Origin: a virus
Direction: 5' to 3' (one strand)
Length of the DNA: 35,803 bases
IMG/VR virus record: IMGVR_UViG_3300021963_000359
Location: 1 to 35,803 of that record
The translations under genes and the position numbers were made by a program. This document shows, piece by piece, positions 981 through 33,227 of this stretch. A model generated the notes under the pieces. It had not been told where the DNA came from, did no database searches, and was given only the letters and a program-made list of their open reading frames with translations. Numbering within the stretch: the stretch's first letter is position 1; every line of letters starts with the position of its first letter.

Positions 981-988
981 GATAAATA
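981..988 (+). promoter_or_regulatory. T4-type late promoter (GATAAATA)
   Basis: GATAAATA matches the NATAAATA -10 element used by T4-like phage late transcription (gp55-type sigma with the sliding clamp). It lies 34 bases before the ATG at 1023 and is overlapped on its 3' side by an inverted repeat at 987-1010. The same octamer with the same downstream architecture recurs at 3898, 16165, 30449 and elsewhere in this window. Confidence 0.7.
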
Positions 989-1010
989 ACTGTAATAATT
1001 AAAACAGTTA
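987..1010 (+). promoter_or_regulatory. Late-leader hairpin
   Basis: TAACTGT at 987-993 and ACAGTTA at 1004-1010 form a perfect 7-bp stem around an AT-only 10-base loop. The structure begins within the late promoter, so transcription would start inside or near the 5' arm. It ends 12 bases before the ATG at 1023. It is one of several inverted repeats placed directly after late promoters in this window. Confidence 0.55.
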
Positions 1011-1022
1011 GCGAGAACATCT

Positions 1023-2363
1023 ATGTTTTTAACAGAATTTAATCAAAAGCCAGCTACTAAGGTAGCTAAAATTAACAAAGTGCTCAGCGAGCAATTTGGT
1101 ATATCCATTAAGACTAATTTTCCTTCTAAAAAGAAGTTAGAAAAGGTTTTAGAGAATACCAACAAGGCACTTATCAAGCTACGCGGTACAAATAAAAAGT
1201 TCCAACTAGATCCAGATTACGCTAAATTTTTAGGAATCAAGGATGTTGTTGAAACAATGATCGCAGAAGGCATGTATGCTAAATCTCCTGCACATGAAGC
1301 TATGTGCGAGATGATCCGCGAAACAGTACGCAGTTTAATGGACAGCGGTTATACAATGGATGAAGCAGCATCAGAGTGTATGAATCGTTACAGAATGGAC
1401 AATCGCTTTGCATACGATGATGAGTATGTATTACCTATCGTTATCACTGCTAGTAAAGAATATATGGAGCAGTGCAGTATGGGTGAAGGTTTAGCTGGCG
1501 GTGATATGGGTGCAACTATTGGTGATAAAATTACTGGCATGCCAGCACACAATCAACTAATGTCAAAAAATGTTGCTGAACAAGTATTACGTGTTCTTGC
1601 TAAAGAAGCTGGTGTCGAATTAACAAATACATCAAGCTACAAAGCTATCGAAGAAAAATTAAATGGCTTCGCTAAGGCAAGTGGCAAGAGTCGTGATGCT
1701 GTAGTTGAATTCTTAAACAGCTTAGACGAGGCAGCATTACTATCAGGCATTCAAATGTTTGGTCGTAAGATTGCAGAGCAAAATGCATACAATCAGGCAG
1801 CAGCCGATGCAGCTCGTAGCGGTGCTAAAGAATTTGAATTCCCTCAAGGTTCAGGTAAGATGCACCCAGTAAAAATGAATAAGGACACTGCTCATAAGAT
1901 CAGCGGTGCAAAGAATGAAAGCATGTTTAACGACGTTATCGACAGTATTCTAAATGAAGAAGTTGATGTTGAACAAGCTGAAGTTGTAATGGCAGTTCGT
2001 GCTCTTGCTGATGATGTTCAAGATCAGATCGAGCGTATCGGTCGTATGATGAACGAAGATGTTCCTGCTATTGCTGATAAGATGCGCGGCGAAATGGGCG
2101 CACAGGCAGCACAGAGCTTTACTGACAGCGTTAATGGTTTACTCGCAAGTCACTTAGAAGCAACTAAGAATGTTAAGACAGGTTTGGATCAAGCAATTGG
2201 TTCAGTTACTGGCGGCGAAGTAGTTGGCGGCTTAGGTGACACTGGTGATTTAGGTGGTGGTTTAGAAGAGCCTGATATGCCAGAAGAAGAACCAGCAATG
2301 GATGTTAATGAACCAGCAGCAGCAGGTCCAGAAGAAGCACCATTAGGAAGAGCTGAAGTTTAA
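1023..2363 (+). CDS. Putative virion or prohead structural protein, 446 residues
   Basis: This acidic, mostly helical protein carries its own late promoter and leader hairpin, the expression pattern of a structural gene. The N-terminal 60 residues are Lys-rich. Residues 80-150 are rich in Met, Glu and Arg with regularly spaced Cys (CEMI, ECMN, QCSMG). A helical region follows, and the C-terminal 50 residues are a low-complexity tail of Gly, Glu, Pro and Ala (EEPAMDVNEPAAAGPEEAP type). The early sequence LSEQ near residue 21 fits the (L/I)xE pattern cut by T4-type prohead protease, but this is weak. It is followed after 2 bases by a gene with a better prohead-targeting N-terminus. Exact role unknown; scaffold, core or tail structural protein are all possible. 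Confidence 0.65.
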   Translation: MFLTEFNQKPATKVAKINKVLSEQFGISIKTNFPSKKKLEKVLENTNKALIKLRGTNKKFQLDPDYAKFLGIKDVVETMIAEGMYAKSPAHEAMCEMIRETVRSLMDSGYTMDEAASECMNRYRMDNRFAYDDEYVLPIVITASKEYMEQCSMGEGLAGGDMGATIGDKITGMPAHNQLMSKNVAEQVLRVLAKEAGVELTNTSSYKAIEEKLNGFAKASGKSRDAVVEFLNSLDEAALLSGIQMFGRKIAEQNAYNQAAADAARSGAKEFEFPQGSGKMHPVKMNKDTAHKISGAKNESMFNDVIDSILNEEVDVEQAEVVMAVRALADDVQDQIERIGRMMNEDVPAIADKMRGEMGAQAAQSFTDSVNGLLASHLEATKNVKTGLDQAIGSVTGGEVVGGLGDTGDLGGGLEEPDMPEEEPAMDVNEPAAAGPEEAPLGRAEV

Positions 2364-2365
2364 AA

Positions 2366-2698
2366 ATGTTGATTCGCGAGATTGTTCTCAGTGAAGGATA
2401 TTACGGCGAATTGATGACAGCCGTACAAGACCTGCTGACTCGTTATATGTCTAAAGACATAAAAGAAATTAACACCGAAAAATTTAAAAGTTTATTAGCA
2501 AAGCAAGGTTACGTTACGTCAACAGATGAATTAATTCAAGCTATTGATCAAAGCGGATTCGCTAGTAGTGTAGATGCACAAAAAATTGTTCCTAAAGGCG
2601 AACTACCTAGCGATATGAATACAGATGCAGAACAGACAGCAGACGTTGGCAAAATGGCCGGCAACCAAGCAATGAAAGATGTTAAGGCGGATCTGTAA
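2366..2698 (+). CDS. Small head-type protein with prohead-targeting-like N-terminus
   Basis: This 110-residue acidic protein starts MLIREIVLSEGYYGEL. In T4, proteins destined for the prohead interior carry an N-terminal peptide of about 10 residues that the gp21 protease removes after (L/I)xE; LSE followed by Gly at residues 8-11 fits this well. The rest is helical with a polar, Asp/Ala-rich C-terminus. It lies 2 bases downstream of the preceding structural-type gene, and its stop overlaps the next ATG (TAATG), so all three are likely one late operon. Packaging in the head is inference from the motif and context. Confidence 0.6.
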   Translation: MLIREIVLSEGYYGELMTAVQDLLTRYMSKDIKEINTEKFKSLLAKQGYVTSTDELIQAIDQSGFASSVDAQKIVPKGELPSDMNTDAEQTADVGKMAGNQAMKDVKADL

Positions 2699-3018
2699 TG
2701 GCAAATATTTTTGTTAATGCAACTCAAGCAAGAATAAACACTAGAAATAACAGTATTATTCATGCAGAGATTAGAAGCATTGAAAATGTTGTTCTAAGTA
2801 ATATTGATACAGGTGTACTTTACGCTAATGTTTCAACTGGAACAACAATGACAAATAGTAACACATATTATCTTGTTTATAATGGTGTTACAAGCGATCC
2901 AACTAAATTAGATCAAATTAATTTTGTTAAAAATTATTTTACTGGCTTAGGTTACGGTGTAAGTATTGTCACTAATGCAACTACCAATACCACTATACAG
3001 TGGAACATTAGTTGGTAA
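2698..3018 (+). CDS. Small beta-rich virion-type protein
   Basis: This protein of 106 residues is dominated by Asn, Thr, Val and Ile with alternating hydrophobic residues, typical of a beta-structured phage tail or head decoration protein. It lacks Cys, a signal peptide and membrane segments. The pattern MANIFVNATQARxNTRNN followed by short strands resembles small structural proteins of marine T4-like phages, although I cannot name a family. The start codon overlaps the previous stop in TAATG, showing translational coupling with the upstream late genes. Role in the virion is inferred from composition and neighbours. Confidence 0.6.
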   Translation: MANIFVNATQARINTRNNSIIHAEIRSIENVVLSNIDTGVLYANVSTGTTMTNSNTYYLVYNGVTSDPTKLDQINFVKNYFTGLGYGVSIVTNATTNTTIQWNISW

Positions 3019-3037
3019 TTTAACAAAGGATAATTAT

Positions 3038-3181
3038 ATGTTAGAAACATTATTTTGGATCGCAGTAGGCGCCTTTATTGGTTGGAATCTTCCACAACCA
3101 CAAATTGCTAAAAACTTTCAAGCAAAATATCTACAAAAGCACATTGATAAAGTAAAAGCATTTTTGCCATTTTTTAAATAA
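3038..3181 (+). CDS. Small single-pass membrane protein
   Basis: This is a 47-residue protein starting MLETLFWIAVGAFIGWNLPQP. A longer frame opens at 2966, but the ATG at 3038 is preceded by AAAGGA at 3025-3030 with normal spacing and does not run through the preceding gene, so I chose it. Residues 4-18 form a Gly-containing hydrophobic segment, followed by a basic, Lys/Gln-rich tail, giving an N-out topology. Similar tiny one-pass proteins are frequent in T4-like marine phages; function unknown. It ends 4 bases before a sigma70-type promoter. Confidence 0.65.
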   Translation: MLETLFWIAVGAFIGWNLPQPQIAKNFQAKYLQKHIDKVKAFLPFFK

Positions 3182-3184
3182 AAT

Positions 3185-3213
3185 TTGACAAACTTTGTTA
3201 AGTATGTTATATT
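3185..3213 (+). promoter_or_regulatory. Sigma70-type promoter of the nuclease gene
   Basis: TTGACA at 3185-3190 and TATATT at 3208-3213 are separated by exactly 17 bases. The expected start of transcription, about 7 bases after the -10 element, coincides with the ATG at 3219, so the mRNA would be leaderless. Such host-type promoters drive early genes in T4-like phages. Confidence 0.8.
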
Positions 3214-3218
3214 ACAAC

Positions 3219-3897: not shown

Positions 3898-3905
3898 GAT
3901 AAATA
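3898..3905 (+). promoter_or_regulatory. T4-type late promoter (GATAAATA)
   Basis: GATAAATA lies 25 bases before the GTG start of the large fibre-like gene. It is immediately followed by a perfect inverted repeat at 3906-3931. No sigma70-type element is visible here, so this gene appears to be purely late, as expected for a structural protein. Confidence 0.75.
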
Positions 3906-3931
3906 CTGTTAAGCGTTAGGAGACTTAACAG
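3906..3931 (+). promoter_or_regulatory. Leader hairpin presenting the Shine-Dalgarno sequence in its loop
   Basis: CTGTTAAG (3906-3913) and CTTAACAG (3924-3931) form a perfect 8-bp stem. The 10-base loop contains AGGAG at 3918-3922, and the last stem base is the G of the GTG start codon at 3931. The Shine-Dalgarno sequence would therefore be displayed in a loop while the start codon is partly paired. Confidence 0.65.
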
Positions 3932-6633
3932 TGGCTGAAGATAACAATAAAGTAATTATTTCCCGTATTCAAAACCGTAGGGGTCTAAAACAGGACCTTC
4001 CTCAACCTTTACGTCCAGGCGAAATTGGGTTTGCAACAGACACCCGACAAGTATTTATTGGTGCTGATCCTGACGATGCAATCAGTGGTGGTTATAATAA
4101 ACAAAGTATTTTTGAAACTACTGTTGGCGCTAAGGATTCTACATCAAGTATTGCTAATAACAATATTGTTGCATTTACAGTACCATTTAAAAAATTCCAT
4201 AAAGGATATTTTGACGGTATAACGAAAGTAGTTAGCTGGCTTCCAAGTGCAAATACTACATCAACTTCTAACCTAAAGATCTTTCCTTCAAATACATTAG
4301 TAACAACTACTGCCACTCCTAATGCAAATATTACTTCGTCTACTATTACGCTAACTGCAACACCTAACGCATATATTACAGTGGGCGATATTGCTTCATT
4401 AAGCAATAATTTGACTACAGTTGTGTCAATAAACTCGGCCGGAAATAGCGTTACACTAGCGGCCAACTTAACTGTAACAACTGCTAATACGCTAACATTT
4501 ATTCCTAACAATTTATTTAATGCAGAAACAAACCTAGCATTTAAGGCAGGTGATCTACTTATTAATAAAAATGGTTCTCGCTTGTTAGGAGATAGCGGTA
4601 ACACAACTCCTGCACCAGCATTTGATTTTAGTTTTGCTGCAACTACGGCTGCAAATAACACGCATATTTTAAATTTTAGAACTGCGCCATTATCAACGGA
4701 AGAAGTTACTGTTTGTTATTATAGCAACACAGCAATTATCCAAGCTATAGAAGGAATCACTACTCAGGGTTACGAAGGTAACATTTCTTTATATAATATC
4801 GGTGAAAAACGATTCGACAGTTTTTATAAAGCATACAGCGTTCCAGAATATAGAAAAATTCCAGCAAGTTTAATAACAGTAAGTCCGACCACTGGTACAG
4901 GATTCATTGGATTACAAAATAAACATATTAGTGTTAATGCTGACAGTGGTGTAATCGATTCACCAACTAGTTTGACCTTAGGTAATTTATTGGTAAGCAG
5001 AAGTGATTGGAGTGCAGTTTCAAACGTTACTGTTAATGCTTCAAATATTGTGTTTAGTGTTGGATCAGTGCCAACTTATAATGTAAGTGGTGCATACAAT
5101 TATATCTATGTTGATAACACAGTTGGATACTTGAACGGAAAAGTTTTCCGATTAATTAACGCAACACCTAGTACTGTAACTGTTAACCTACCAGCTAATA
5201 ACTTCTCAGTGGCACGTACAGTTTCGGCAAATGCAATTGCAGGCAATTCTAATGTAACAGTATCATTAAGTGGTAATGTTGACGGTGTTAGACAAGGCGC
5301 TAACGTTAAAATTATAGATGGCAGCAATACTACCGGCCTCAATGGATTAGTATTTTCAGTATCAAATGAACCCACAACTGCTGGTGTAATTGCATTCAGT
5401 ACATCGAGTGCGCCGTTCTTAGCTAATGCTAGTGTGCAATTTATTAATTACGGCAATGATCCTACAGGTAACGGAAATGTACAAATTTTCAGTGCGTTAC
5501 ACGGCTTTAATTCAACAGCCGACGATGTTACTATTGTAACATCGTCTAACACTTCTGCAATAAGCAATACAACGTTCAGTGTACAAGGCGTATCAAGTCC
5601 AAATACATTCTTTATCAATCCAACTCTTGCAGTAGTTGGCGCAGTAACCGGAGTATTTTCTCCAGATTTAAATTCTGGCACAGCTAACGTAACAGCAATT
5701 AGAAGCATAAATTTAAGTTCAAATACAACATTAACACAAGTACAGTCTACTATCAACGATTTAAATGACTGGCCCTACATGGGCTTTATTCCAGATAGCG
5801 AAAATAAAATATATATTACTCATAAACCAGAATACACAAGTGTTGGCATGAATTTTAGGTTACATGAAGATCCAGCTACGTTAACACTCAGTGTCCTAAA
5901 ATTGGAAAATAGAGAATATACTCGTAACGAAACAGTTAAGGCTAAATTAGAGAAATGGATCAATAGTTGCTTAGAAAGCGATTTAGTAGACATTTTCTCT
6001 ACAGCAGGCGTTGGAAACAAATACGCATCTGATGCAGTACTTGTAAGATCTATAGGTCAGTACTTAGCGGCTATTAACAACACCTATGACGAAATTACTT
6101 TTGCCAGCAGAGAGGAAGCAAGAGATTTTAATAAGATTGTAAATAACATTTTCTTTGAGCGTCCTGACCCAGATAACGAAAATGTCAGAGGATTAGTAAA
6201 TCTAAAAACTAACTTAGAATTGCAAGTGCGTTCCAGTGTTGCACTAGGTGACAGAACAGTTTCTTATGCAGAACTTAATTCTGCAAGTATTCCAGCAGCC
6301 GGCGGCAATATTAATGCTATGACTCAAAGCATAGACGTTTACGATACATTTATTATTGACTATTCAATAACTGACGCAAGCTCTGTTGTAGTGTCTGGTG
6401 AAAATTATCAAAGAGTTGGCACAATGTATATTTCAGGAAGATCTGATTTTAACAGCGGTTCTGGTGCAGTAATTTTCCAAGATAATTCTAGTGAAATGAT
6501 AGACACCGGATTAAGTGGTAATGTAACATTTAACGCATCGATGGTTGGTACCAATATTATATTCAACGTTACTAACGGTATCGGTAGAGACTTGTCGATG
6601 AAATATCTCGTTAGAAGATGGAGCGCATTGTAA
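3931..6633 (+). CDS. Large tail-fibre or baseplate-type structural protein with tropism-determinant-like N-terminus
   Basis: This 900-residue protein begins with a segment of the type IQNRRGLKQDLPQPLRPGEIGFATDTRQVFIG (residues 11-43). That pattern, RRG...L.PGEIG...DT...IG, is shared with the N-terminal domain of phage major tropism determinants and many tail fibres, where it anchors the fibre and forms a beta-prism. The long middle region is rich in Asn, Thr, Ser and Val with repeated short beta motifs (SNTT, NVTV). Residues 620-760 are more helical and charged, and the C-terminus is beta-rich again. Expression uses a GTG start, a late promoter and a hairpin leader. Receptor binding or baseplate role is inference; a structural role is likely. 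Confidence 0.75.
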   Translation: MAEDNNKVIISRIQNRRGLKQDLPQPLRPGEIGFATDTRQVFIGADPDDAISGGYNKQSIFETTVGAKDSTSSIANNNIVAFTVPFKKFHKGYFDGITKVVSWLPSANTTSTSNLKIFPSNTLVTTTATPNANITSSTITLTATPNAYITVGDIASLSNNLTTVVSINSAGNSVTLAANLTVTTANTLTFIPNNLFNAETNLAFKAGDLLINKNGSRLLGDSGNTTPAPAFDFSFAATTAANNTHILNFRTAPLSTEEVTVCYYSNTAIIQAIEGITTQGYEGNISLYNIGEKRFDSFYKAYSVPEYRKIPASLITVSPTTGTGFIGLQNKHISVNADSGVIDSPTSLTLGNLLVSRSDWSAVSNVTVNASNIVFSVGSVPTYNVSGAYNYIYVDNTVGYLNGKVFRLINATPSTVTVNLPANNFSVARTVSANAIAGNSNVTVSLSGNVDGVRQGANVKIIDGSNTTGLNGLVFSVSNEPTTAGVIAFSTSSAPFLANASVQFINYGNDPTGNGNVQIFSALHGFNSTADDVTIVTSSNTSAISNTTFSVQGVSSPNTFFINPTLAVVGAVTGVFSPDLNSGTANVTAIRSINLSSNTTLTQVQSTINDLNDWPYMGFIPDSENKIYITHKPEYTSVGMNFRLHEDPATLTLSVLKLENREYTRNETVKAKLEKWINSCLESDLVDIFSTAGVGNKYASDAVLVRSIGQYLAAINNTYDEITFASREEARDFNKIVNNIFFERPDPDNENVRGLVNLKTNLELQVRSSVALGDRTVSYAELNSASIPAAGGNINAMTQSIDVYDTFIIDYSITDASSVVVSGENYQRVGTMYISGRSDFNSGSGAVIFQDNSSEMIDTGLSGNVTFNASMVGTNIIFNVTNGIGRDLSMKYLVRRWSAL

Positions 6634-7164: not shown

Positions 7165-9465
7165 ATGTCCAAGCCTATTCTTATTTCGAAAAGAGATGGT
7201 AACAAAGAGGAACTCAACCTCGATAAAATTCACAAAGTAGTATTTCACGCATGTGAGGGTATTAGTGGCGTAAGTCCTAGCGAAGTTGAAATTAAAAGTC
7301 ATATTCAATTTTATAACGGCATTAATAGTAGCGATATCCAAGAGACATTAATTAAATCAGCTGCCGATCTTATCACAGAAGAAACACCTAATTATCAATA
7401 TGTAGCCGGACGTTTAATTGTGTATCATCTACGCAAACATGTTTATGGTGACTTTGAACCTCCTCATCTACTAAAAATTATTAACAACAATATCAAGAAG
7501 GGTTTTTACGATTCTGAAATCCTAGAGCTATATTCTGAAGATGACATTAATCAACTTAACGAGTATATTCAACACAGCCGTGACAATATGCTTACCTATG
7601 CCGCGATGGAACAATTCCGCGGGAAGTATCTAGTGCAAAATCGTGCAACAGGACAAATTTTTGAAACACCGCAAGTTGCATACATGATGATTAGTGCAAC
7701 ACTATTCAGCAAGTACCCTAAAGAAACACGTTTACAATTTGTTAAAGACTACTACGATGCTATCAGCACTTTTGACATCAGCTTACCTACTCCTGTTATG
7801 GCCGGTGTACGTACACCACAGCGCCAATTTAGTAGTTGTGTGCTAATTGAATCAGGTGATAGCTTAGACAGCATTAACGCAACATCTAGTGCGGTTGTTA
7901 AGTATGTTAGTCAGAAAGCTGGTATTGGTGTAGGCGCCGGCAGTATTCGTGCTATTGGTTCGCCTATTCGTAATGGCGACGCAACGCACACAGGTGTTAT
8001 TCCTTTCTTTAAACTATTCCAAGCGGCAGTTAAGAGTTGCAGTCAAGGCGGCGTTCGAGGCGGAGCCGCTACACTATACTATCCTATTTGGCATCTTGAA
8101 ATCGAGGATATGTTAGTTCTTAAGAACAACAAAGGTACAGAAGATAATCGTGTACGTCAAATGGACTATGGTGTACAGTTTAACAAGCTAATGTATGAGC
8201 GCCTAATTACCGGTGGTGACATTACACTTTTCTCTCCACACGATGTTCCAGAAATGTATAATGCATTCTTTAATGATCAAGACAAGTTTAGAGAACTTTA
8301 TGAAACAGCTGAACGCAATACACGTCTACGTAAAAAGACTGTAAAAGCAATTGATTTATTCAGTGCATTCGTAACAGAGCGTAAAGACACAGGACGTATC
8401 TACTTAATGAATGTTGACCACGCTAATACACATGGCGCATTTAAGGAAGACGTTGCACCTATTAAACAAAGTAACCTTTGCTGTGAAATTAACTTACCTA
8501 CTAAACCTCTAAATGACATTAATGACAGAGAAGGTGAAATCAGTCTTTGCACATTAAGTGCAATCAACTGGGGTAATATTAAGAGCCCAACAGATTTTGA
8601 AAAGCCATGTGAATTAGCAGTACGTGCTTTGGACGAACTACTTGATTATCAAAGCTATCCTGTAATCGCCGCCGAACTAAGCACAATGAATCGCAGACCA
8701 TTAGGCATTGGCATTATTAATTTTGCATATTGGCTAGCTAAGAATGATTCTAATTATCAAAATCCTAAATTAGATTTAGTTGATGAATGGGCAGAAGCAT
8801 GGAGTTATTATCTAATTAAGGCTAGCGTGAAGCTAGCTCAAGAAAAGGGCGCATGTCCTAAGAGTAACGAAACTAAGTACAGCGATGGTGTTACTCCTAA
8901 CATGACTTATAAGCGTGAACTAGACGAACTAGTTAAGCACAAAGAGCGCATGGACTGGAAGTCATTACGCAAAGACCTTAAGCAGTACGGTGTACGCAAT
9001 AGTACGCTAATGGCACTAATGCCAGCAGAAACGTCTGCACAGATTAGTAACAGTACCAATGGCATTGAACCTCCGCGTAGTTATGTTAGTATCAAAGGCA
9101 GTAAGCACGGACAATTAAAGCAAGTTGTACCAGGTTATCCGCGTCTTAAGAACAAGTATGATTTACTATGGAATCAAAAGAGTCCGGAAGGGTATTTAAA
9201 GATTTGTGCAGTTTTGCAGAAATACATAGATCAAGGTATTAGTGTAAACACAAGTTATAATCCTCAGCACTTTGAGGATGAAAAAATCCCAATGAGCGTA
9301 TTGTTACAACATATCGTTATGTTTTACAAATATGGTGGAAAGCAATTATACTACAATAACACATTCGATGGCCAAGGTGAAGTAGATGTTGAAAAGCTAT
9401 CTACTCCCGTTGCTCTTGACAACGCTGTTGTCGAAGAAGATGATTGCGATAGTTGCAAAATTTAA
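7165..9465 (+). CDS. nrdA: Class Ia ribonucleoside-diphosphate reductase, alpha subunit
   Basis: The enzyme reduces ribonucleoside diphosphates to deoxy forms for phage DNA synthesis. At 766 residues it is collinear with E. coli NrdA: an N-terminal ATP-cone (residues 1-95) for allosteric activity control, the redox pair Cys225 (SSCVLIE) and Cys462 (SLCTLSA), and the radical site Asn437-Cys439-Glu441 (NLCCEI). The C-terminal tail DDCDSCKI carries the mobile Cys pair that hands electrons from glutaredoxin to the active site. All key residues are present. It is preceded by AGGAAAG and starts an operon of nrdA, nrdB and glutaredoxin driven by a sigma70-type promoter, fitting early expression. Confidence 0.97.
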   Translation: MSKPILISKRDGNKEELNLDKIHKVVFHACEGISGVSPSEVEIKSHIQFYNGINSSDIQETLIKSAADLITEETPNYQYVAGRLIVYHLRKHVYGDFEPPHLLKIINNNIKKGFYDSEILELYSEDDINQLNEYIQHSRDNMLTYAAMEQFRGKYLVQNRATGQIFETPQVAYMMISATLFSKYPKETRLQFVKDYYDAISTFDISLPTPVMAGVRTPQRQFSSCVLIESGDSLDSINATSSAVVKYVSQKAGIGVGAGSIRAIGSPIRNGDATHTGVIPFFKLFQAAVKSCSQGGVRGGAATLYYPIWHLEIEDMLVLKNNKGTEDNRVRQMDYGVQFNKLMYERLITGGDITLFSPHDVPEMYNAFFNDQDKFRELYETAERNTRLRKKTVKAIDLFSAFVTERKDTGRIYLMNVDHANTHGAFKEDVAPIKQSNLCCEINLPTKPLNDINDREGEISLCTLSAINWGNIKSPTDFEKPCELAVRALDELLDYQSYPVIAAELSTMNRRPLGIGIINFAYWLAKNDSNYQNPKLDLVDEWAEAWSYYLIKASVKLAQEKGACPKSNETKYSDGVTPNMTYKRELDELVKHKERMDWKSLRKDLKQYGVRNSTLMALMPAETSAQISNSTNGIEPPRSYVSIKGSKHGQLKQVVPGYPRLKNKYDLLWNQKSPEGYLKICAVLQKYIDQGISVNTSYNPQHFEDEKIPMSVLLQHIVMFYKYGGKQLYYNNTFDGQGEVDVEKLSTPVALDNAVVEEDDCDSCKI

Positions 9466-9486
9466 ATTAAGTAGGAAAAATTAAGT

Positions 9487-10623
9487 ATGAGTATTTCTGT
9501 CTATAACTCTAAAAACACAAGGAATCACACAGACGCTAAAATGTTTCTAGATGACTCGGGTGGAGTCACTATGCAACGCTACGATGTTTTAAAATATCGT
9601 CAATTTGATAAAATTACTGAAAAACAGTTGGGCTTTTTTTGGAGGCCTGAAGAAGTTGATATTATTCGTGATGCTAAAGATTTTAAAGACTTAACTGATC
9701 ACGAACAGCATATTTTTACAAGTAATTTGAAGCGTCAGATTTTACTAGACAGTGTGCAGGGCCGTAGTCCTAACTTGGCTTTTCTTCCTCTAGTTAGTAT
9801 TCCTGAACTAGAAACATGGATTGAAACTTGGTCATTTAGCGAAACTATCCATAGTCGTAGCTATACACATATCATTCGTAATATCTATTCTGATCCTAGC
9901 AAGGTATTTGATGAAATGTCATCAATGCCAGAAATTATCAATTGTGCAGATAGCATTAGTAGAAATTATGACAAGCTAATTGAAATGTCATCTTGGTATA
10001 ATCTTCTTGGCGCAGGTACACACACTGTTAATGGTAAGAAGGTTGTTGTTGATTTATATGAACTAAAGAAGCAACTATGGTTATGCCTAATGAGTGTTAA
10101 CATTTTAGAAGGTGTACGTTTTTACGTTAGCTTTGCATGTAGTTGGGCGTTTGCTGAACTAAAGAAGATGGAAGGCAATGCTAAGATTATTAAGCTAATT
10201 GCTCGAGATGAAAACGTACACTTAGCAAGCACTCAACAATTACTAAAGTTACTGCCGCAAGATGATGCAGATTTTGTTAAAATTGCTAAAGAGTGCGAAG
10301 GACACGCACTAGAAATGTTCATGGAAGCTGTTGAACAAGAAAAGGCTTGGGCCGAGTATTTGTTTAAAGATGGTAGCATGATCGGGCTTAATGCAGAACT
10401 ACTAAAGCAATATGTAGAATGGATCGCCGCACGTAGAATGCGTTCAGTTGGTCTTACTGCACCTTACAGCACAAGTGCTAGCAATCCTCTACCTTGGACA
10501 CAAAAGTGGATCAGTGGCGGCGAAGTGCAAGTTGCACCGCAAGAAACAGAAATCACCAGTTATGTTATTGGTGGTACAAAACAAGACGTAACAGAAGACA
10601 CATTCAAAGGATTCAGCTTATAA
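9487..10623 (+). CDS. nrdB: Class Ia ribonucleoside-diphosphate reductase, beta subunit
   Basis: This 378-residue protein houses the diiron-tyrosyl radical cofactor that starts catalysis in NrdA. Visible ligand motifs are [15 protein letters not shown] (the ExxH pair followed by the radical Tyr), [12 protein letters not shown], and ARDENVHL (the second ExxH). The length and motif order match class Ia NrdB. It follows nrdA by 21 bases, with AGTAGGA as ribosome binding site, and the glutaredoxin gene follows after 1 base. The C-terminal end, which docks onto NrdA, is present ([10 protein letters not shown]). Nothing appears damaged. Confidence 0.96.
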
Positions 10624-10907: not shown

Positions 10908-11225
10908 ATGTACAACACAATAGAATTATTAAGCAAAGTAGTTACTTTAAAAACAATCAAAGGCGATGAAATTATTGCCCGCCTTATAGGTGTTGATGAA
11001 GAAACAAATACGTTAACATTAGAGTATCCTAAGATTGTTGTTGTCGCTGGCGACACTGTTGTTCTAGCACCCTTTGCACTAACTGCTAGAGCTGATATAG
11101 TTATTTCTGAAGCAAAACAATATCTAGCAGTAATGGAATCGATTGAAAGCACTGTTAACGATTATAACGATCTTATCAAAGAGCAAAAACAGCTAGAAAA
11201 AGAAGATGCTGAAGAAACGGCATAA
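10908..11225 (+). CDS. Conserved phage protein, possibly Sm-like
   Basis: This 105-residue protein has an N-terminal beta-rich half in which LKTIKGDEIIARLIGVDEETNTLTL resembles an Sm/Hfq strand pattern: a strand, a Gly-Asp turn, a long bent strand, then D-x-x-T-N-x-L. The C-terminal third is an acidic, charged helix (EQKQLEKEDAEE). It is the fourth gene of the nrd operon, preceded by AGGAAA. An RNA-binding, Hfq-like role would be attractive but rests only on this pattern; it could equally be an unrelated beta-barrel. Its 3' end carries a late promoter for the PAAR gene. Confidence 0.65.
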   Translation: MYNTIELLSKVVTLKTIKGDEIIARLIGVDEETNTLTLEYPKIVVVAGDTVVLAPFALTARADIVISEAKQYLAVMESIESTVNDYNDLIKEQKQLEKEDAEETA

Positions 11226-11228
11226 ATA
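11221..11228 (+). promoter_or_regulatory. T4-type late promoter (CATAAATA) of the PAAR gene
   Basis: CATAAATA overlaps the end of the preceding gene and is followed by only 5 bases before the ATG at 11234. That places the transcription start at or next to the A of the ATG. No Shine-Dalgarno sequence is visible, so a leaderless late mRNA is likely. The same 5-base spacing occurs at 30436 on the other strand. Confidence 0.65.
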
Positions 11229-11233
11229 AGAAT

Positions 11234-11509
11234 ATGCCAGCACTAGGTTTAGTAACAAAAAGTTTAGTAGGACCAGGTACCGATCTGGGTCCTGGCGCAC
11301 CTACAGTATTCGCAGAAGGCCTGAATGTTAGTGTTGTCGACGATACCGTGAGCCCTCACGGTGCAGCACCGCACACAAAATCTATTATCAAAACCGGCAG
11401 CGGTACAGTATATGCAAACGGTAAGCGTGTGGTAGTAGCACAAATAAGTGTAGCGTCTTGCGGACACATTGTAAATACCGGTGCAGGAACAGTATTTGTA
11501 GGTTCATAA
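11234..11509 (+). CDS. PAAR-domain baseplate spike-tip protein
   Basis: This 91-residue protein has the repetitive Gly-rich beta pattern of PAAR proteins (TGSGTVYANGK, NTGAGTVFVGS), which form the sharp, metal-bound tip of the T4 central spike (gp5.4) and of type VI secretion spikes. Putative metal ligands His42, His47, Cys76 and His78 give the typical three-His, one-Cys set. The protein is a bare PAAR domain with no effector extension, as expected for a phage tip. It has its own late promoter and is followed after 9 bases by a radical SAM gene. Confidence 0.88.
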   Translation: MPALGLVTKSLVGPGTDLGPGAPTVFAEGLNVSVVDDTVSPHGAAPHTKSIIKTGSGTVYANGKRVVVAQISVASCGHIVNTGAGTVFVGS

Positions 11510-15109: not shown

Positions 15110-15123
15110 TATAAGTATTTATC
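15110..15123. promoter_or_regulatory. Overlapping divergent late promoters
   Basis: On the minus strand GATAAATA (complement of 15116-15123) lies 44 bases before the subtilisin ATG, whose Shine-Dalgarno is TATGGAG. On the plus strand TATAAGTA (15110-15117), one base off the late consensus, lies 23 bases before the GTG of the PP-loop gene. The two elements overlap, so use in one direction should compete with the other. Confidence 0.55.
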
Positions 15124-15134
15124 ATACTTAGGAG
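15113..15134 (+). promoter_or_regulatory. Leader hairpin and Shine-Dalgarno of the PP-loop gene
   Basis: AAGTAT (15113-15118) and ATACTT (15124-15129) form a perfect 6-bp stem with a 5-base loop, directly followed by AGGAG at 15130-15134. The GTG start follows after 6 bases. This is the same order (late-type promoter, short hairpin, Shine-Dalgarno) as at other late genes here. Confidence 0.5.
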
Positions 15135-16178: not shown

Positions 16179-16290
16179 ACGCCTTAGGACCGTGGTAGTT
16201 TCTACCTCGCAGGCGTCAACAGCGGGAACTGCTGGGCAACAAATGATTCGCTACCATTTGGGTCAGAGTGCCATTAATCATTAATCATTA
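16179..16290 (+). ncRNA. Structured RNA candidate downstream of a late promoter
   Basis: No protein is encoded here, yet the segment is more GC-rich than its surroundings and holds consecutive helices. ACGCC (16179-16183) pairs with GGCGT (16212-16216), enclosing GGTAG-TTT-CTACC (16194-16206) extended by CG/CG. CAGCGG-GAA-CTGCTG (16220-16234, one G-U pair) follows. CAAATG (16240-16245) pairs with CATTTG (16255-16260), and GGCA (16235-16238) with TGCC (16269-16272) closes that arm. It ends in tandem ATTAATC copies (about 16274-16289). I do not recognise the RNA family. A small phage RNA or a structured 5' leader of the gene at 16359 are both possible. Confidence 0.5.
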
Positions 16291-16320
16291 AATATGTAGA
16301 TTACTATACTGCCCAAAACG

Positions 16321-16349
16321 TATAAATATTACATAAGTAATTTTGGGAG
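16321..16349 (+). promoter_or_regulatory. Late promoter, leader hairpin and Shine-Dalgarno of the 55-residue gene
   Basis: TATAAATA (16321-16328) is a perfect late promoter. ATTAC (16328-16332) and GTAAT (16337-16341) form a 5-bp stem with loop ATAA directly after it, and GGGAG (16345-16349) is the ribosome binding site for the ATG at 16359. Confidence 0.65.
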
Positions 16350-16592: not shown

Positions 16593-16600
16593 TATAAATA
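16593..16600 (+). promoter_or_regulatory. T4-type late promoter (TATAAATA) of tRNA-Thr
   Basis: A perfect TATAAATA lies 7 bases before the first base of the tRNA. Transcription should start at or within one or two bases of the mature tRNA 5' end, so little or no RNase P trimming would be needed. Confidence 0.65.
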
Positions 16601-16607
16601 TTTTCAC

Positions 16608-16682
16608 GCCCACTTAGCACAGCGGTAGTGCAACTGATTTGTAATCAGTAGGTCGGGAGTTCAAATCTCTCAGTGGGCACCA
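16608..16682 (+). tRNA. tRNA-Thr (anticodon TGT)
   Basis: The cloverleaf is complete. The acceptor stem is GCCCACT/AGTGGGC, the D stem GCAC/GTGC, and the anticodon stem ACTGA/TCAGT with loop TTTGTAA, reading TGT (decodes ACA). The T arm contains GTTCAAATC, and CCA is encoded at 16680-16682. ACA is a favoured codon in AT-rich phage genes. The tRNA stands between a terminator with a late promoter and the EF-hand gene, whose start lies 20 bases after the CCA. Confidence 0.96.
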
Positions 16683-18860: not shown

Positions 18861-18889
18861 TTGACATTGCATTAATCGTATGCTATTAT
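18861..18889 (+). promoter_or_regulatory. Sigma70-type promoter of the 2OG oxygenase gene
   Basis: TTGACA (18861-18866) and TATTAT (18884-18889) are 17 bases apart. The expected transcription start, 7 bases after the -10 element, is 18896, exactly the A of the second in-frame ATG. There is no Shine-Dalgarno sequence. Confidence 0.78.
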
Positions 18890-19983: not shown

Positions 19984-20834
19984 ATGACGATGATGATAAT
20001 ATGACATTTGCTATTGGTCACGGCGCAGCCGCCAGTGATACTATTACAATTACCGCAGATGATAACAGCACAATTGATTTGAGTGATATTAAAATTAATG
20101 CTAGTCCTTTTCCAAATAAATTCCAGTGGAACGGATTAGGCGGCGGCCCCGGATGGGCCAGTGTTATTGATTCTTTTAAGTCTACTACTGAGACTAAAAA
20201 CTCTGTAGTATACGATTTAGACATTGATCCTTTAGCGGCCATTATTGAAATCAAAGCTGAAGGACGCTTCCCTGATATCGAACTTATTAAGCGTCACATT
20301 CCTTCTAAAGAAACTAACGAATATGCACAGACAATTCGTGAATACTTCCTCGACAAGGTTGTAACTCAGAAATTAAGCAGTACATATCGCGATACAGATT
20401 TCAAACGCGATATGGTTAAAGCACTTAAACTAAGTGGTAAGCAAGTTTTAGAAGAACATCATATTAAGTTGTTGTACCGGATGCCTGATTTTTACAAAGA
20501 AGACATTTTCTTAGATACTATTGTAGAAAATAACCGTTCATATCCAACTAACAGCAGAGAAACACTTAAAAATGTTTCGCTTACTTATATTGGTAGCCTT
20601 AATTTTTATCGAAGAGGATATCGTGCTAAGAACTTCTACTTTAAGAATTCAGAAGGTTTTGTGTTTTTGATTAGCTCGTCTAATTCCACTAACCTACTTC
20701 CTATCACTAAGATTTTTAATCAGATTAAAACTATGGTAGTATCAGGTACAGCGAATTCTTCAAAGCTCAAAGGACACGATTTTAACATAATTACGCTAGA
20801 ACATAAATATAATGTAGAGGAGTTTACATTTTGA
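19980..20834 (+). CDS. Hypothetical protein, 284 residues
   Basis: I do not recognise this protein. It begins with an acidic segment (MNDDDDN), has Gly-rich WNGLGGGPGWASV around residues 49-61, a helical central region, and a basic, Tyr/Phe-rich C-terminal half (YRRGYRAKNFYFKNSEG). No membrane segment, signal peptide or catalytic motif stands out. It overlaps the exonuclease gene by 4 bases (ATGA) and is followed after one base by another small unknown, so these are co-translated. Its expression with an exonuclease suggests a nucleic-acid-related role, but this is only context. Confidence 0.65.
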   Translation: MNDDDDNMTFAIGHGAAASDTITITADDNSTIDLSDIKINASPFPNKFQWNGLGGGPGWASVIDSFKSTTETKNSVVYDLDIDPLAAIIEIKAEGRFPDIELIKRHIPSKETNEYAQTIREYFLDKVVTQKLSSTYRDTDFKRDMVKALKLSGKQVLEEHHIKLLYRMPDFYKEDIFLDTIVENNRSYPTNSRETLKNVSLTYIGSLNFYRRGYRAKNFYFKNSEGFVFLISSSNSTNLLPITKIFNQIKTMVVSGTANSSKLKGHDFNIITLEHKYNVEEFTF

Positions 20835-21900: not shown

Positions 21901-21928
21901 TTGACAAAAATATAAAACAGTGTATAAT
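21901..21928 (+). promoter_or_regulatory. Sigma70-type promoter of the tRNA/RNA cluster
   Basis: TTGACA (21901-21906) and TATAAT (21923-21928) are 16 bases apart, with TG directly before the -10 box. Transcription would start near 21935, about 20 bases before tRNA-Arg, and probably continues through the structured RNA and tRNA-Leu. Confidence 0.85.
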
Positions 21929-21955
21929 GAAACAATAAATAAAGCGTTACAAAAT

Positions 21956-22032
<77 letters not shown>

Positions 22033-23535: not shown

Positions 23536-23571
23536 ATTAAAAACACTCGTTTTAATAAAAAACTAATAAAT

Positions 23572-24066
23572 ATGTGTACAGGACCTATACAGGTCATCTA
23601 CCCCGAGACTACACATATGATCAAAGAAGCTGACGCCAGCATTTTGCCTTTCCTTTCAGACGACCCTGTTCGTCCTAATATCCCACACCACATTAGACTA
23701 GCTGACAAAAACAAAGTTTTTTGTTACTATGAATCTGAAGAAGATACACAACCTAAAGCAATAGTATGTACTGCTTTTAGGGACTATGTTCCTACAGACG
23801 AAAATGATATATTAGAAACCAAGGAATCAGAAAAAGGCACAATTTTAACTCTTTATACTATTTGGTCGTATGCTGCCGGCACAGGGCGTAAGTTAGTCTT
23901 TGAACTTATGGATCATGTTAAAAATTCGTTTACTGAGATTGAACGCATTGTTACCCTAAGTCCTAAAACAGAAATGGCTAGAAAATTTCATACTAACAAC
24001 GGCGCTGTTCAAATACAGGAAAACGATACCACAATTAACTACGAATACACTATCAATAAAAAATAA
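23572..24066 (+). CDS. GNAT-type acetyltransferase-like protein
   Basis: This 164-residue protein has the GNAT-like layout: a strand followed by LTLYTIWSYAAGTGRKLVFELMDHVK (about residues 92-117), where AAGTGRKL corresponds to the acetyl-CoA pyrophosphate-binding loop (Q/RxxGxG/A), and later EIERIVTLSPKTEMARKFHTNNGA, matching the last helix of GNAT enzymes. The substrate is unknown. A late-type AATAAATA (23565-23572) overlaps the ATG, which is too close for this start; the ATG at 23617 is an alternative if that promoter is used. A 7-bp inverted repeat lies at 23536-23556. Confidence 0.72.
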   Translation: MCTGPIQVIYPETTHMIKEADASILPFLSDDPVRPNIPHHIRLADKNKVFCYYESEEDTQPKAIVCTAFRDYVPTDENDILETKESEKGTILTLYTIWSYAAGTGRKLVFELMDHVKNSFTEIERIVTLSPKTEMARKFHTNNGAVQIQENDTTINYEYTINKK

Positions 24067-28504: not shown

Positions 28505-28841
28505 CACCGCTTGGATCGGTATTGTCTTGTACGTTTGGAGTAACAGATACTTCATCGCCAGGATTGTTTAATTCAGCTTCTAAGTAATGCTTTGCTGTGC
28601 TGATATAGTCACCAGCACGAACAATTTTAGATGTCCACCACTGTGGAAGATCACCGTTCGGTACTTCTTTTAGCATCTTGTGCAGTTCAACAGCATACTT
28701 ACCAATCTTATAAAGCTCTTGACGTAGCATGTCTGGTTCGTCATCTACATGACCAACCACAGTCTTTACAACTTCATCACCTGTTTCAGGTTCTTCTTTT
28801 AAGATACCTGCTAGTTGTTGTAGTCTTGTTAAATCGTTCAT
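28497..28841 (-). CDS. Small acidic virion-type protein with LAG motif N-terminus
   Basis: This 114-residue acidic protein starts MNDLTRLQQLAGILKEEPETG. The LTRLQQLAG core resembles LRKLAG segments in the upstream gene, and LKE followed by Glu fits the (L/I)xE cleavage pattern of the T4-type prohead protease. A helical middle (LRQELYKIGKYAVELHKML) and a polar C-terminus follow. Similar LxxLAG N-termini recur in small structural proteins of marine T4-like phages. It begins at the last base of the upstream gene, so it shares its late transcript. Head localisation is inference. Confidence 0.6.
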   Translation of the reverse strand: MNDLTRLQQLAGILKEEPETGDEVVKTVVGHVDDEPDMLRQELYKIGKYAVELHKMLKEVPNGDLPQWWTSKIVRAGDYISTAKHYLEAELNNPGDEVSVTPNVQDNTDPSGVS

Positions 28842-30430
28842 TATCTTAAACCTGCTAGTTTGCGTAGTTCTGCTAAGGCAGCTTCCATTGCATTGACTGA
28901 TGTTGACTCAACTGCTTCATTCTTAGAAACAGCATATGGATTAACTGCTTCGCGTGTATCAGCATCGCTGTTACCGTAGTCGTTGTCTAATTGATCAGCA
29001 ACAATGTCTAGGATCTTTTCAAAGTCATCGTCTGGATGTAAGTGATGATCGATTGCTACGTCATCGTACATTTGCTGAATAATTTTAGCAGCGGTAGCTT
29101 CTGCCGGAGTCTTTGGATTAGTCATTACATCGTAGCAATCTAGTTCACCGGAACCGCACTGTGCTAGTACTTGCTCAGCTTCCGTGCTAAAGCCTTCTTT
29201 AACATCATCATCTTCCGCATCTTCGGCTGCGTCTTTCATTGATTCTTCTTCGTCACCGTCCTTATCTAGGTCTAAGAAGTCTGGCTTTGATTCTTCAATG
29301 CCATAGTCATTGCGGATGCTGGCTAAGTCTACTGATTCACGCTTGAACTCATCTTCTTCGTCATCGATGTCCATATCTTTATAAGCTGGACTATCATCAC
29401 CTGCTTTAAGGGCCATGTTCTTAACAGCATTGACTGTTAAATCTAGAACAAACTGCTTTAGGTCTTTTGGAAGACTTGCAATACCAATATCCTTTTGGTT
29501 CATGATCTGCATAATATCACTTAGCTTTTGACCAACTGCTAGACTGTTATCATCTTTAGGATCTAGTCTTTCACTGAATTCAGACATCAGTGCTTCAGGA
29601 GAGCGTAGTAGTGCCTGGATAAACTGTTCTTGCTTTACTGTAGGATCGTTAACGTCTGCACCCTTAGGGAAACGATTAGCAATACTCATTTTAGCACTTG
29701 AATCGTTTGGTGGTAGGAACTTAGCTGTTTTAGCCTCTGCCCCACTAAATTCTACTGGTGCTGCTTCTTGCATTGGTAATCCTGCTAGCTTTCTTAGGAT
29801 GTTAATTTGTTCGCTCATATTTGCACTCGCTATCTTGTTATAAATTAAGTTAAAAACTTTTTCGTTATATGTACCAAATTGTTTAGTATAGATTTGTTTG
29901 GCTGCTTCAATGTCCGGAGCAGATTTTAACGCATCTCTAAACGCACTAGCACTAGCAACTTCATCGCCGATTTTAATAGTAGGCGCTAGTGTGATATAAC
30001 CACGCTCACTCATCGACTTTGGATTCGCTGATATTGTATTTATCTTCTGGTAGTACTTAGGCTTTGATTCACCCTTTACGGTCATATCTAAACCGGTTTT
30101 TGGATCCACATTATTGAATGGAAAACGGTCTAGATCCTTTTCGCCCACAGCAAAAATAATAACTGTTTCTGCTGGGTTAAAGTACTTTGCATAGTCCTCT
30201 TGGTGATAAGGACGAGTTACTGCTAGTACACGATTAGATGGGACACCGTGAGCGGCAGCAATTAACTGCTTTTCCTTAAAGTTAAAAGGGCTTTTGGGCG
30301 GTTCTACTTTATCGCTAGTACCAACAAAAACTTCAGCATCAGGGAATTGTGCTTGAAGCTGTTTAAATACTTCAGCATGGTGACTCAGCATGGGCTGGAA
30401 TCTACCTGGGTATATAACGACTTTGTTCAT
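28841..30430 (-). CDS. Nucleotidyltransferase-domain protein fused to an acidic structural-type region
   Basis: I start at MNKVVIYPGRFQPML (30430); the frame's earlier ATG lies inside the late promoter. The first 200 residues form a cytidylyltransferase/NMN adenylyltransferase-like domain: GRFQPMLSHHAEVF in place of GRFQPFHxGH, then FVGTSDK, and ASASAFRDAL near residue 165 as the C-terminal nucleotide-binding segment. The second His of HxGH is shifted, so activity is uncertain. The remaining 325 residues are acidic and helical (DDEEDEF, EEESMKDAAEDAEDDD), with LRKLAGL both at the junction (about residue 215) and at the very C-terminus. Late promoter and absence of a Shine-Dalgarno suggest a leaderless late mRNA. 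Structural plus enzymatic roles are possible. Confidence 0.75.
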   Translation of the reverse strand: MNKVVIYPGRFQPMLSHHAEVFKQLQAQFPDAEVFVGTSDKVEPPKSPFNFKEKQLIAAAHGVPSNRVLAVTRPYHQEDYAKYFNPAETVIIFAVGEKDLDRFPFNNVDPKTGLDMTVKGESKPKYYQKINTISANPKSMSERGYITLAPTIKIGDEVASASAFRDALKSAPDIEAAKQIYTKQFGTYNEKVFNLIYNKIASANMSEQINILRKLAGLPMQEAAPVEFSGAEAKTAKFLPPNDSSAKMSIANRFPKGADVNDPTVKQEQFIQALLRSPEALMSEFSERLDPKDDNSLAVGQKLSDIMQIMNQKDIGIASLPKDLKQFVLDLTVNAVKNMALKAGDDSPAYKDMDIDDEEDEFKRESVDLASIRNDYGIEESKPDFLDLDKDGDEEESMKDAAEDAEDDDVKEGFSTEAEQVLAQCGSGELDCYDVMTNPKTPAEATAAKIIQQMYDDVAIDHHLHPDDDFEKILDIVADQLDNDYGNSDADTREAVNPYAVSKNEAVESTSVNAMEAALAELRKLAGLR

Positions 30431-30435
30431 ACTAG

Positions 30436-30456
30436 TATTTATCATTGTGATAAATA
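30436..30456. promoter_or_regulatory. Back-to-back divergent late promoters
   Basis: GATAAATA on the minus strand (complement of 30436-30443) drives the nucleotidyltransferase-fusion gene, with only 5 bases to its ATG. GATAAATA on the plus strand (30449-30456) drives iscU. Only 5 bases separate the two elements. Confidence 0.75.
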
Positions 30457-30476
30457 TTTGTATATTCTAGAAAGGA
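30453..30476 (+). promoter_or_regulatory. Leader hairpin of iscU
   Basis: AATAT (30453-30457) and ATATT (30462-30466) form a short perfect stem with loop TTGT, overlapping the 3' end of the late promoter. AAAGGAAGG follows at about 30470-30478 as a strong Shine-Dalgarno for the ATG at 30482. The stem is AT-only and weak. Confidence 0.4.
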
Positions 30477-30481
30477 AGGTT

Positions 30482-31963: not shown

Positions 31964-32021
31964 ATATGCTACCAAAAATATTTAATACTAGTTGTGTAAA
32001 TAAATTTCGTTTCTTGGTAAC

Positions 32022-32567
32022 TTATTCGACTCTCCACGATTTGGTATTCAATTTAATATTAGTCGGCCAGTCGCCTTCGGTATAAGACTTGTCGTGGAAC
32101 CTTAACTCATTGGTTGGCATTATAGATAATCTACCGTTTTCTAGTTGAATAAACATAAACTCTTTAGACTGTGATGGTTCCATAGTAAAGCCATCGTTCA
32201 TTGGAATAGCAGTAAACAAATAATGACCGAACAACTTATTGCTTCGAATTTCTGCTCGTTGCCCTTTTAGATAGTCGTATTGTACAACTGAAAATTGATC
32301 TCCGTAACAATCCCATATCTGTGACTCTAGCAATGTCCAGTTTTCTTCTGGTGTTGCAGAAAATGCTAGTTTGTGTGGAGGTACTCCTCTCCAAACTGCA
32401 CCGCATTCGAGCATGACATGACAGCCCCAGGCTAGTCCAGGTTTTGAATGTAAACCAAACCAAATGCATGGTTCAAATGTATTTTCTTTTCCGTCTCTAC
32501 GAACAACTGAGGAATCAACCCAGCAATATATATGATATGGAATATTTCCAGATCCTGTGTATAACAT
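32022..32567 (-). CDS. Hypothetical protein, 181 residues
   Basis: I do not recognise this protein. It is rich in Trp, Tyr and Cys and looks beta-structured (IPYHIYCWVDSSVV, FEPCIWFGLHSKPG, WGCHVMLECGAVWRG), with no signal peptide or membrane helix. Conserved-looking His and Cys residues (GCHVMLEC) could bind a metal but no known motif fits. AAGG about 9 bases before the ATG supports the start. It lies 18 bases after the DUF5872-like gene and probably shares its late transcript. Confidence 0.6.
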   Translation of the reverse strand: MLYTGSGNIPYHIYCWVDSSVVRRDGKENTFEPCIWFGLHSKPGLAWGCHVMLECGAVWRGVPPHKLAFSATPEENWTLLESQIWDCYGDQFSVVQYDYLKGQRAEIRSNKLFGHYLFTAIPMNDGFTMEPSQSKEFMFIQLENGRLSIMPTNELRFHDKSYTEGDWPTNIKLNTKSWRVE

Positions 32568-32585
32568 ACTAAACCTTATAAAAAA

Positions 32586-32984
32586 TTACCACTTACGGCA
32601 AGACCAGTAACGTGCTTTTGTTCGTGGCCCTGGATTATCGCAATTGTGTCTTGCTCGGAAACTTTTACGTCTAGCCGGATTTGACTTTTTAATACGCATG
32701 TTAGGATCACCAAAGTTAACTTTAACTACATTACCTTTAGGATTCTTAACGTATACCTTAAACTTTTTAACATCGCCCTGCATAGGTTTGCCTAGAGGAA
32801 CATCGCGTCCTTGATACTCCGCTTCTGTTAGAGCATTAAATAAATTTTCGTCGGCATGTAATACAATGCCATCGGCAGTTACTGACTCTACCCAAGTAGA
32901 CAACATTTCTGATTCTGACAGTTCAATATCAAAGTAGTCACCTATTGCGGGTGATTCAACAATAACAATATCTGCAATTTTCAT
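32586..32984 (-). CDS. DUF5872-like conserved phage protein
   Basis: The C-terminal half of this 132-residue protein reads KKFKVYVKNPKGNVVKVNFG, then MRIKKSNPARRKSFRARHNC and DNPGPRTKARYWSCRKW, a motif I recognise from the widespread phage DUF5872 family. It is very basic, with two Cys that may bind metal. The N-terminal half is acidic and begins MKIADIVIVESPAIGDYF, where VES and the K-I-x-x-I pattern resemble a prohead-targeting peptide. A late promoter (33011-33018) and AAGGA precede it. A DNA-binding or head-interior role is inferred. Confidence 0.78.
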   Translation of the reverse strand: MKIADIVIVESPAIGDYFDIELSESEMLSTWVESVTADGIVLHADENLFNALTEAEYQGRDVPLGKPMQGDVKKFKVYVKNPKGNVVKVNFGDPNMRIKKSNPARRKSFRARHNCDNPGPRTKARYWSCRKW

Positions 32985-33010
32985 CGGAATATCCTTTTAT
33001 GCTATATAGC

Positions 33011-33018
33011 TATTTATC
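33011..33018 (-). promoter_or_regulatory. T4-type late promoter (GATAAATA) of the DUF5872-like gene
   Basis: On the minus strand GATAAATA is followed immediately by the palindrome GCTATATAGC (complement of 33001-33010) and then AAGGA before the ATG at 32984. This again places a short dyad directly after a late promoter, although this palindrome alone would not make a stable hairpin. Confidence 0.7.
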
Positions 33019-33026
33019 AATAACTA

Positions 33027-33176
33027 TTAGCCTTGACCTCTGTACTTCTTATAGCTTTTGCGTCTATGTTTATTCATACTGCTAGTTTTAATACGTCCAC
33101 GCCCGATGCTTGTACCTTTTACAGCATTTGCATTTAATACAGTTTTTGCGTTGCCGCCTTTAATTTGTCTTGCCAT
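33027..33176 (-). CDS. Very small, highly basic protein, 49 residues
   Basis: The frame begins MARQIKGGNAKTVLNANAVKG and ends HRRKSYKKYRGQG. About a third of the residues are Lys or Arg and there is no acidic residue, a composition expected of a nucleic-acid-binding or DNA-packaging-associated protein. The start has AGGAG 10 bases upstream, and a late promoter with an elaborate leader precedes it. Stop and next late promoter are close, so it is probably expressed alone. Family unknown to me; it may be an internal head protein. Confidence 0.72.
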   Translation of the reverse strand: MARQIKGGNAKTVLNANAVKGTSIGRGRIKTSSMNKHRRKSYKKYRGQG

Positions 33177-33227
33177 TAGTGTGTTACTCCTATGTAAACT
33201 TTAATACTAAAGTACACACTATTTATT
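33177..33227 (-). promoter_or_regulatory. Late promoter with nested leader structure around the Shine-Dalgarno
   Basis: Read on the minus strand: AATAAATA (complement of 33220-33227) is the late promoter. TAGTGTGT (33221-33214) pairs perfectly with ACACACTA (33184-33177), which ends directly at the ATG. Inside, ACTTTA-GTAT-TAAAGT (33213-33198) forms its own perfect 6-bp hairpin, and AGGAG (33191-33187) lies in the remaining loop. The promoter overlaps the end of the upstream gene. Confidence 0.6.

What the first reader, a model, noticed from the sequence alone, without database searches (positions are those of the whole stretch)
981..33227. Recurrent short inverted repeats placed directly after late promoters
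At least six NATAAATA-type late promoters are followed at once, or overlapped, by a short perfect inverted repeat and then a Shine-Dalgarno: 987-1010 (7 bp), 3906-3931 (8 bp), 15113-15129 (6 bp), 16328-16341 (5 bp), 30453-30466 (5 bp), and minus-strand 33177-33221 (8 bp outer, 6 bp inner). A palindrome also follows the promoter at 33011. The stem sequences differ between sites while their position is constant, which suggests a conserved structural feature such as a 5'-end stabilising hairpin or a late-translation signal. I know of no described class of such leaders in this phage group.
Basis: partly seen in the sequence, partly recalled or inferred. Interest (0 to 1): 0.75.

Follow-up and report, generated by a model that had tools for sequence, protein, structure and literature searches.

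The report
Late-promoter hairpins that block early translation
In an uncultured T4-like phage group, short hairpins beside late promoters look like locks that keep early transcripts from making late proteins, as in a few T4 genes, and a second set of late genes seems to start its messenger RNA exactly at the start codon.

Summary
The inverted repeats are real and exceed chance: stems of at least 7 bp at 5 of 19 octamers, against a mean of 0.9 in shuffles and 37 of 467 decoy motifs. Only read-through RNA forms the whole hairpin, over the Shine-Dalgarno/start codon: the T4 gene e/soc/49/I-Tev/segB device.

Window locks: 3898, 20802 and 23565 best; 16321 and 33227(-) moderate; 981 weak. Sites 15113, 30453 and 33011 are not locks. 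In relatives, 22 of 83 gene clusters with a late leader are masked by >=4 kcal/mol, against 16 of 299 decoy clusters. The strongest family is a putative metalloprotease gene beside DNA ligase: 20 of 21 leaders masked at p<=0.02. All evidence is computational.

A second class emerged: octamer exactly 5 nt before ATG in 44 of 303 cases (decoys 41 of 11,559), suggesting leaderless late mRNAs. Both classes would confine translation to RNAs begun at the late promoter.

The parts
981..988 (+). late-promoter octamer GATAAATA before gene 1023
987..1010 (+). 7-bp inverted repeat (987-993/1004-1010); weak lock candidate, pairing not kept in all relatives
   Evidence: diff 2.2 kcal/mol, p=0.16
3185..3213 (+). 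sigma-70-type early promoter (11 of 12), heads the unit that runs into 3898
   Evidence: consensus match only
3898..3905 (+). late-promoter octamer GATAAATA
3905..3932 (+). 9-bp hairpin (3905-3913/3924-3932), SD AGGAG 3918-3922 in the loop, GTG start 3931 at the 3' arm: read-through lock of gene 3931-6633
   Evidence: diff 4.9, p=0.07; L021 has two double compensatory changes, one broken pair and one gap
16312..16347 (+). extended hairpin around octamer 16321-16328: outer 16312-16318/16341-16347, inner 16328-16332/16337-16341, reaches the SD of gene 16359
   Evidence: diff 4.4, p=0.075
18861..18889 (+). sigma-70-type early promoter (11 of 12), heads the unit that runs into 20802
   Evidence: consensus match only
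20802..20809 (+). late-promoter octamer CATAAATA
20811..20830 (+). 6-bp hairpin (20811-20816/20825-20830), SD in the loop: read-through lock of gene 20836
   Evidence: diff 7.3-7.6, p=0.025-0.03
21901..21928 (+). sigma-70-type early promoter (12 of 12), heads the tRNA and 2OG-oxygenase unit that runs into 23565
   Evidence: consensus match only
23565..23572 (+). late-promoter octamer AATAAATA
23570..23618 (+). 9-bp outer hairpin (23570-23578/23610-23618) with 5-bp inner (23582-23586/23591-23595), covers part of ATG 23617
   Evidence: diff 6.5, p=0.028
33220..33227 (-). late-promoter octamer AATAAATA
33177..33221 (-). 8-bp outer hairpin (33214-33221/33177-33184) abutting ATG 33176
   Evidence: diff 4.5, p=0.19
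15113..15129 (.). palindrome overlapping a minus-strand octamer (15116-15123) between divergent genes; no RBS masking for gene 15071(-)
   Evidence: diff 1.3, p=0.75
30436..30466 (.). two divergent octamers (30436-30443 minus, 30449-30456 plus) and the palindrome they make; no masking
   Evidence: diff 0.0, p=1.0
33001..33018 (-). octamer 33011-33018 plus palindrome; no masking of gene 32984(-)
   Evidence: diff 0.7, p=0.57
11221..11236 (+). octamer exactly 5 nt before ATG 11234 of the PAAR-like gene: predicted leaderless late mRNA
30428..30443 (-). octamer exactly 5 nt before ATG 30430 (gene 28841-30430): predicted leaderless late mRNA

Best explanation
A subset of late genes in this T4-like phage group sits inside or just behind early-type transcription units. 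Each carries a T4-type late promoter whose own DNA encodes the 5' arm of a hairpin. RNA that reads through from an early promoter contains both arms, so the Shine-Dalgarno sequence and/or start codon is folded away and the late gene is not translated early. RNA begun at the late promoter starts in or after the 5' arm, cannot form the whole hairpin and is translated. In this window the locks are at 3898, 20802 and 23565 (best supported), 16321 and 33227(-) (moderate) and perhaps 981. Shown by computation: the repeats, their excess over chance, the predicted read-through-only masking, preserved pairing in some relatives, and consensus early promoters upstream of three of them. Inferred: the exact start site, actual read-through transcription, and repression in the cell.
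For: Geometry: in read-through RNA the arms cover SD/start; RNA from 5 nt past the octamer is open; for the window and G021 leaders the result is stable for assumed starts from +3 to +8.
Calibration: in T4 1-100 kb the score gives I-TevII 14.5, e 13.8 and 12.6 (two octamers), 49 11.2 and segB 9.4 kcal/mol, the five highest of 15 sites; soc, 4.2, is ninth.
Controls: masking >=4 kcal/mol in 33 of 123 octamer leaders against 25 of 401 decoy-motif leaders; >=10 in 7 of 123 against 0 of 401. By homologous gene cluster 22 of 83 against 16 of 299, p=2.8e-7.
Strongest family: putative metalloprotease gene next to DNA ligase. 20 of 21 leaders at p<=0.02, differences 6.5-18.8 kcal/mol (L040 is the exception). 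58 distinct octamer leaders fold a median of 18.7 kcal/mol more stably as read-through than as late RNA, part of it due to length. In 32 of them pairs are kept in 92% of cells against <=52% for slid pairs; covariation score matched by 1 of 500 shuffles. Diverged members (L073, L106, L087, L167) pair with other sequences.
Window 3898: the same hairpin in 7 of 8 aligned rows (window included); the eighth, L021 (49% aa), has two double compensatory changes, one break, one gap.
Context: consensus early promoter, co-directional, within 2.5 kb upstream of 17 of 37 masked against 21 of 100 unmasked leaders, p=0.004; cluster level 11 of 22 against 18 of 70, p=0.032. In the window 3185, 18861 and 21901 head the units that enter 3898, 20802 and 23565, with one terminator-like site between (20145). 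Late sigma gp55 family in 5 of 6 related records over 200 kb.
Against: The window alone is modest: per-site p 0.028-0.19 for the six candidates; Fisher 0.0016 for those six (chosen after inspection), 0.015 for all nine leaders tested. A first statistic, the number of pairs, showed no excess in the window (93 of 200 swaps and 139 of 200 shuffles as high) and a slight one in close relatives (11 of 200, 4 of 200). Read-through opening cost itself is not higher than in decoys (median 3.94 against 4.88, p=0.81); the excess lies in the difference and in a subset. Shuffle p is not small for some known T4 locks either (segB 0.17). The 981 stem has mismatches in L208 and L221; both 20836 homologues found lack the exact octamer; of two homologues of gene 23617 one lacks it and one (37% aa) is not masked; leaders in the same place as 33227 in L006/L007, not shown to be homologous, carry a GTGTGTT arm before the octamer but are not masked. 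Masked leaders are not significantly commoner behind co-directional genes (25 of 82 against 4 of 30, p=0.052; rank test p=0.34). The early-promoter excess is absent within 1 kb (6 of 37 against 10 of 100) and early-type promoters are also commoner downstream. No start site, read-through RNA or protein timing was measured. Syn9, P-SSM2 and pelagiphage HTVC008M have no leader with >=4 kcal/mol and p<=0.05 (0 of 7, 0 of 8, 0 of 13), so it is not a general T4-like trait.
Confidence: 0.75

Rival explanations
1. 5'-end hairpins of the late mRNA: the stem forms in the late transcript and stabilises it or aids ribosome loading.
For: Inner stems at 33227(-) and 23565 lie past the expected start and could stay in late RNA. 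T4 genes 25 and 38 have helpful intramolecular structures (PMC3014915 passage).
Against: The main 5' arms begin in or right after the octamer, or before it in many relatives; late RNA would lack most of them. Late RNAs are more open than decoys.
Confidence: 0.08
2. DNA-level operators: palindromes that bind a repressor or activator over the late promoter, as I-TevI does on its own promoter.
For: I-TevI autorepression at an overlapping operator is known (PMC2988022 passage); palindromes at 15113 and 30453 are DNA-symmetric.
Against: Arm sequences differ between sites, register shifts, and some pairs change with compensation between relatives; 3' arms reach the SD or start codon.
Confidence: 0.07
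3. Chance repeats in AT-rich leaders plus octamer-octamer symmetry at divergent promoters.
For: Fits 15113, 30453 and 33011, and perhaps 981; window-only tests are weak.
Against: Stem excess over shuffles and decoys; masking 22 of 83 against 16 of 299 clusters; the ligase-neighbour gene family.
Confidence: 0.1

Closest known systems
T4 gene e, soc, 49, I-TevI/II/III and segB, and Aeh1 mobE read-through hairpins
   Same: T4-type late promoter in or beside the 5' arm, SD/start covered only in early or middle RNA, late RNA lacks the arm. Window scores (4.1-7.6) overlap the range of T4 soc to segB (4.2-9.4) and the ligase-neighbour genes reach that of e and I-TevII. HNH endonuclease genes are masked here too (L052, L224).
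   Different: In an uncultured phage group without a close cultured relative in the collection searched; masked genes include predicted portal, tail sheath, head-tail adaptor, nuclease, SNase and a metalloprotease-like gene. Function not shown.
T4 gene 25 / 38 intramolecular mRNA structures
   Same: Hairpin in the translation initiation region of a late gene.
   Different: Those help initiation across a long SD-AUG spacing (PMC3014915 passage); here the arm lies before the late start and covers the RBS.
Leaderless phage mRNAs
   Same: A start codon at the RNA 5' end; phage transcripts are said to be often leaderless (PMC5312081 passage; lambda cI is recalled).
   Different: Here it would be tied to the T4-type octamer at exactly 5 nt, in many genes; 0 of 65, 35 and 38 octamers in T4, KVP40 and Syn9 and 1 of 66 in P-SSM2.

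Membership tests
T4-type read-through RBS-sequestering late leader | T4-type late promoter at the leader | tested here: met
   Octamers at all named sites; gp55 family in 5 of 6 related records over 200 kb, no match in the 7 shorter ligase- or leader-relatives G001-G005, G007, G013 and not searched in the window
T4-type read-through RBS-sequestering late leader | SD and/or start codon paired in read-through RNA and free in late RNA | tested here: met
   Predicted: opening-cost difference 4.4-7.3 kcal/mol at five window leaders, 2.2 at 981; five known T4 cases 4.2-14.5
T4-type read-through RBS-sequestering late leader | 5' arm lies upstream of or across the late start site | tested here: inconclusive
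   Holds for assumed starts +3 to +8 after the octamer and fits the ATG-at-5 class, but the start is not mapped in this group
T4-type read-through RBS-sequestering late leader | Early or middle RNA reads into the gene | tested here: inconclusive
   Consensus early promoters upstream of three window leaders and in excess in the group; no RNA data
T4-type read-through RBS-sequestering late leader | Translation repressed from long RNA, normal from late RNA | not testable with these tools
   needs reporters or ribosome profiling
5'-end stabilising hairpin of the late mRNA | Both arms lie within the late transcript | tested here: not met
   with the start inferred at 5-6 nt after the octamer; inner stems at 23565 and 33227 may remain
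Leaderless mRNA | Start codon at the RNA 5' end, no SD | tested here: inconclusive
   ATG at exactly 5 nt in 44 of 303 octamers; SD-like motif before 5 of 61 such starts against 147 of 205 starts at 17-35 nt; 5' end not mapped

The most novel reading that the evidence does not exclude
This phage group confines translation of its late genes to RNAs that begin at the late promoter by two separate designs: read-through locks for genes with a leader, and leaderless starts (octamer, 5 nt, ATG, no SD) that ribosomes cannot use inside a longer RNA. The leaderless design also occurs in pelagiphage HTVC008M, at annotated structural genes.
Probability: 0.5. Interest if true: 0.8.

Novelty: new variant of a known kind. 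Interest (0 to 1): 0.6.

Why it matters
T4 work found a handful of late genes locked against early translation. Here the same logic appears across an uncultured lineage of large T4-like phages and reaches predicted structural genes, which suggests that read-through is a general problem for genomes that mix early and late genes. The leaderless class, if confirmed, gives a precise marker of late starts in phages where others could not predict late promoters (pelagimyophages, PMC7029224 passages), and makes timing of translation testable from sequence.

Tried and rejected
Counting base pairs between the promoter side and the RBS was too blunt: any 33-nt stretch pairs weakly; replaced by opening cost of the RBS. 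The co-directional against divergent test gave only a trend. The T4 sliding-clamp family rang nowhere, controls included, so it says nothing. Rfam found only three tRNAs. Terminators as an account of the hairpins were rejected: terminator-like sites in the window are at shuffle level (10 and 11 found against means of 9.9 and 9.1) and none coincides with a lock. No protein structure was predicted. The label 'metalloprotease-like' rests on a conserved HExxH motif in alignment A1 and recall; no Pfam cut-off was passed and no PHROG matched.
Full report
What the window is. The window is a 35,803-base virus record. Its closest fetched relatives are other uncultured phage contigs; in the phages collection DNA search gave four short matches and protein searches with three window genes only matches below 60% identity. 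It holds predicted ribonucleotide reductase, DNA ligase, GH6, NifU and subtilase genes, PAAR-like and Mtd_N-like genes just under their curated cut-offs, and three tRNAs. Nineteen NATAAATA octamers occur on the two strands. The T4 and cyanophage late promoter is TATAAATA/NATAAATA (PMC2984593 passage), and the late sigma factor family (phrog_234) is found in 6 of 20 related records searched, among them five of the six over 200 kb.

Noticed in passing
window 11221-11236 (+), 30428-30443 (-); L203-L268; HTVC008M (L288-L295): Octamer exactly 5 nt before ATG, mostly with no SD, a strong excess over decoys: predicted leaderless late mRNAs in this group and in pelagiphage HTVC008M.
   Followed up: partly
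window about 16180-16280 (+), between octamer 16165 and octamer 16321: Conserved noncoding structured element (26 predicted pairs, 5 with double changes in 7 aligned rows, A3), no Rfam match up to E=1; candidate small RNA or leader element.
   Followed up: partly
window 16593-16608 and 21901-21956 (+): Octamers lie directly before tRNA-Thr and tRNA-Arg genes; a 12-of-12 early-type promoter (21901-21928) lies just before the second octamer (21934), so these tRNAs may be made early and late.
   Followed up: no
L203:4547(-), L205:2109(-): SNase-like gene with a 13-14 bp perfect hairpin around the octamer; predicted masking 16.0 and 14.1 kcal/mol in read-through RNA.
   Followed up: partly
HTVC008M 7562-9557 (L352): Curli secretion genes (CsgF, CsgG, CsgB-like) as annotated in the phage record; the first has a predicted leaderless start.
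   Followed up: no
L269-L274: gp55-like matches lie in open frames of 280-300 codons, longer than T4 gp55 (185 aa).
   Followed up: no
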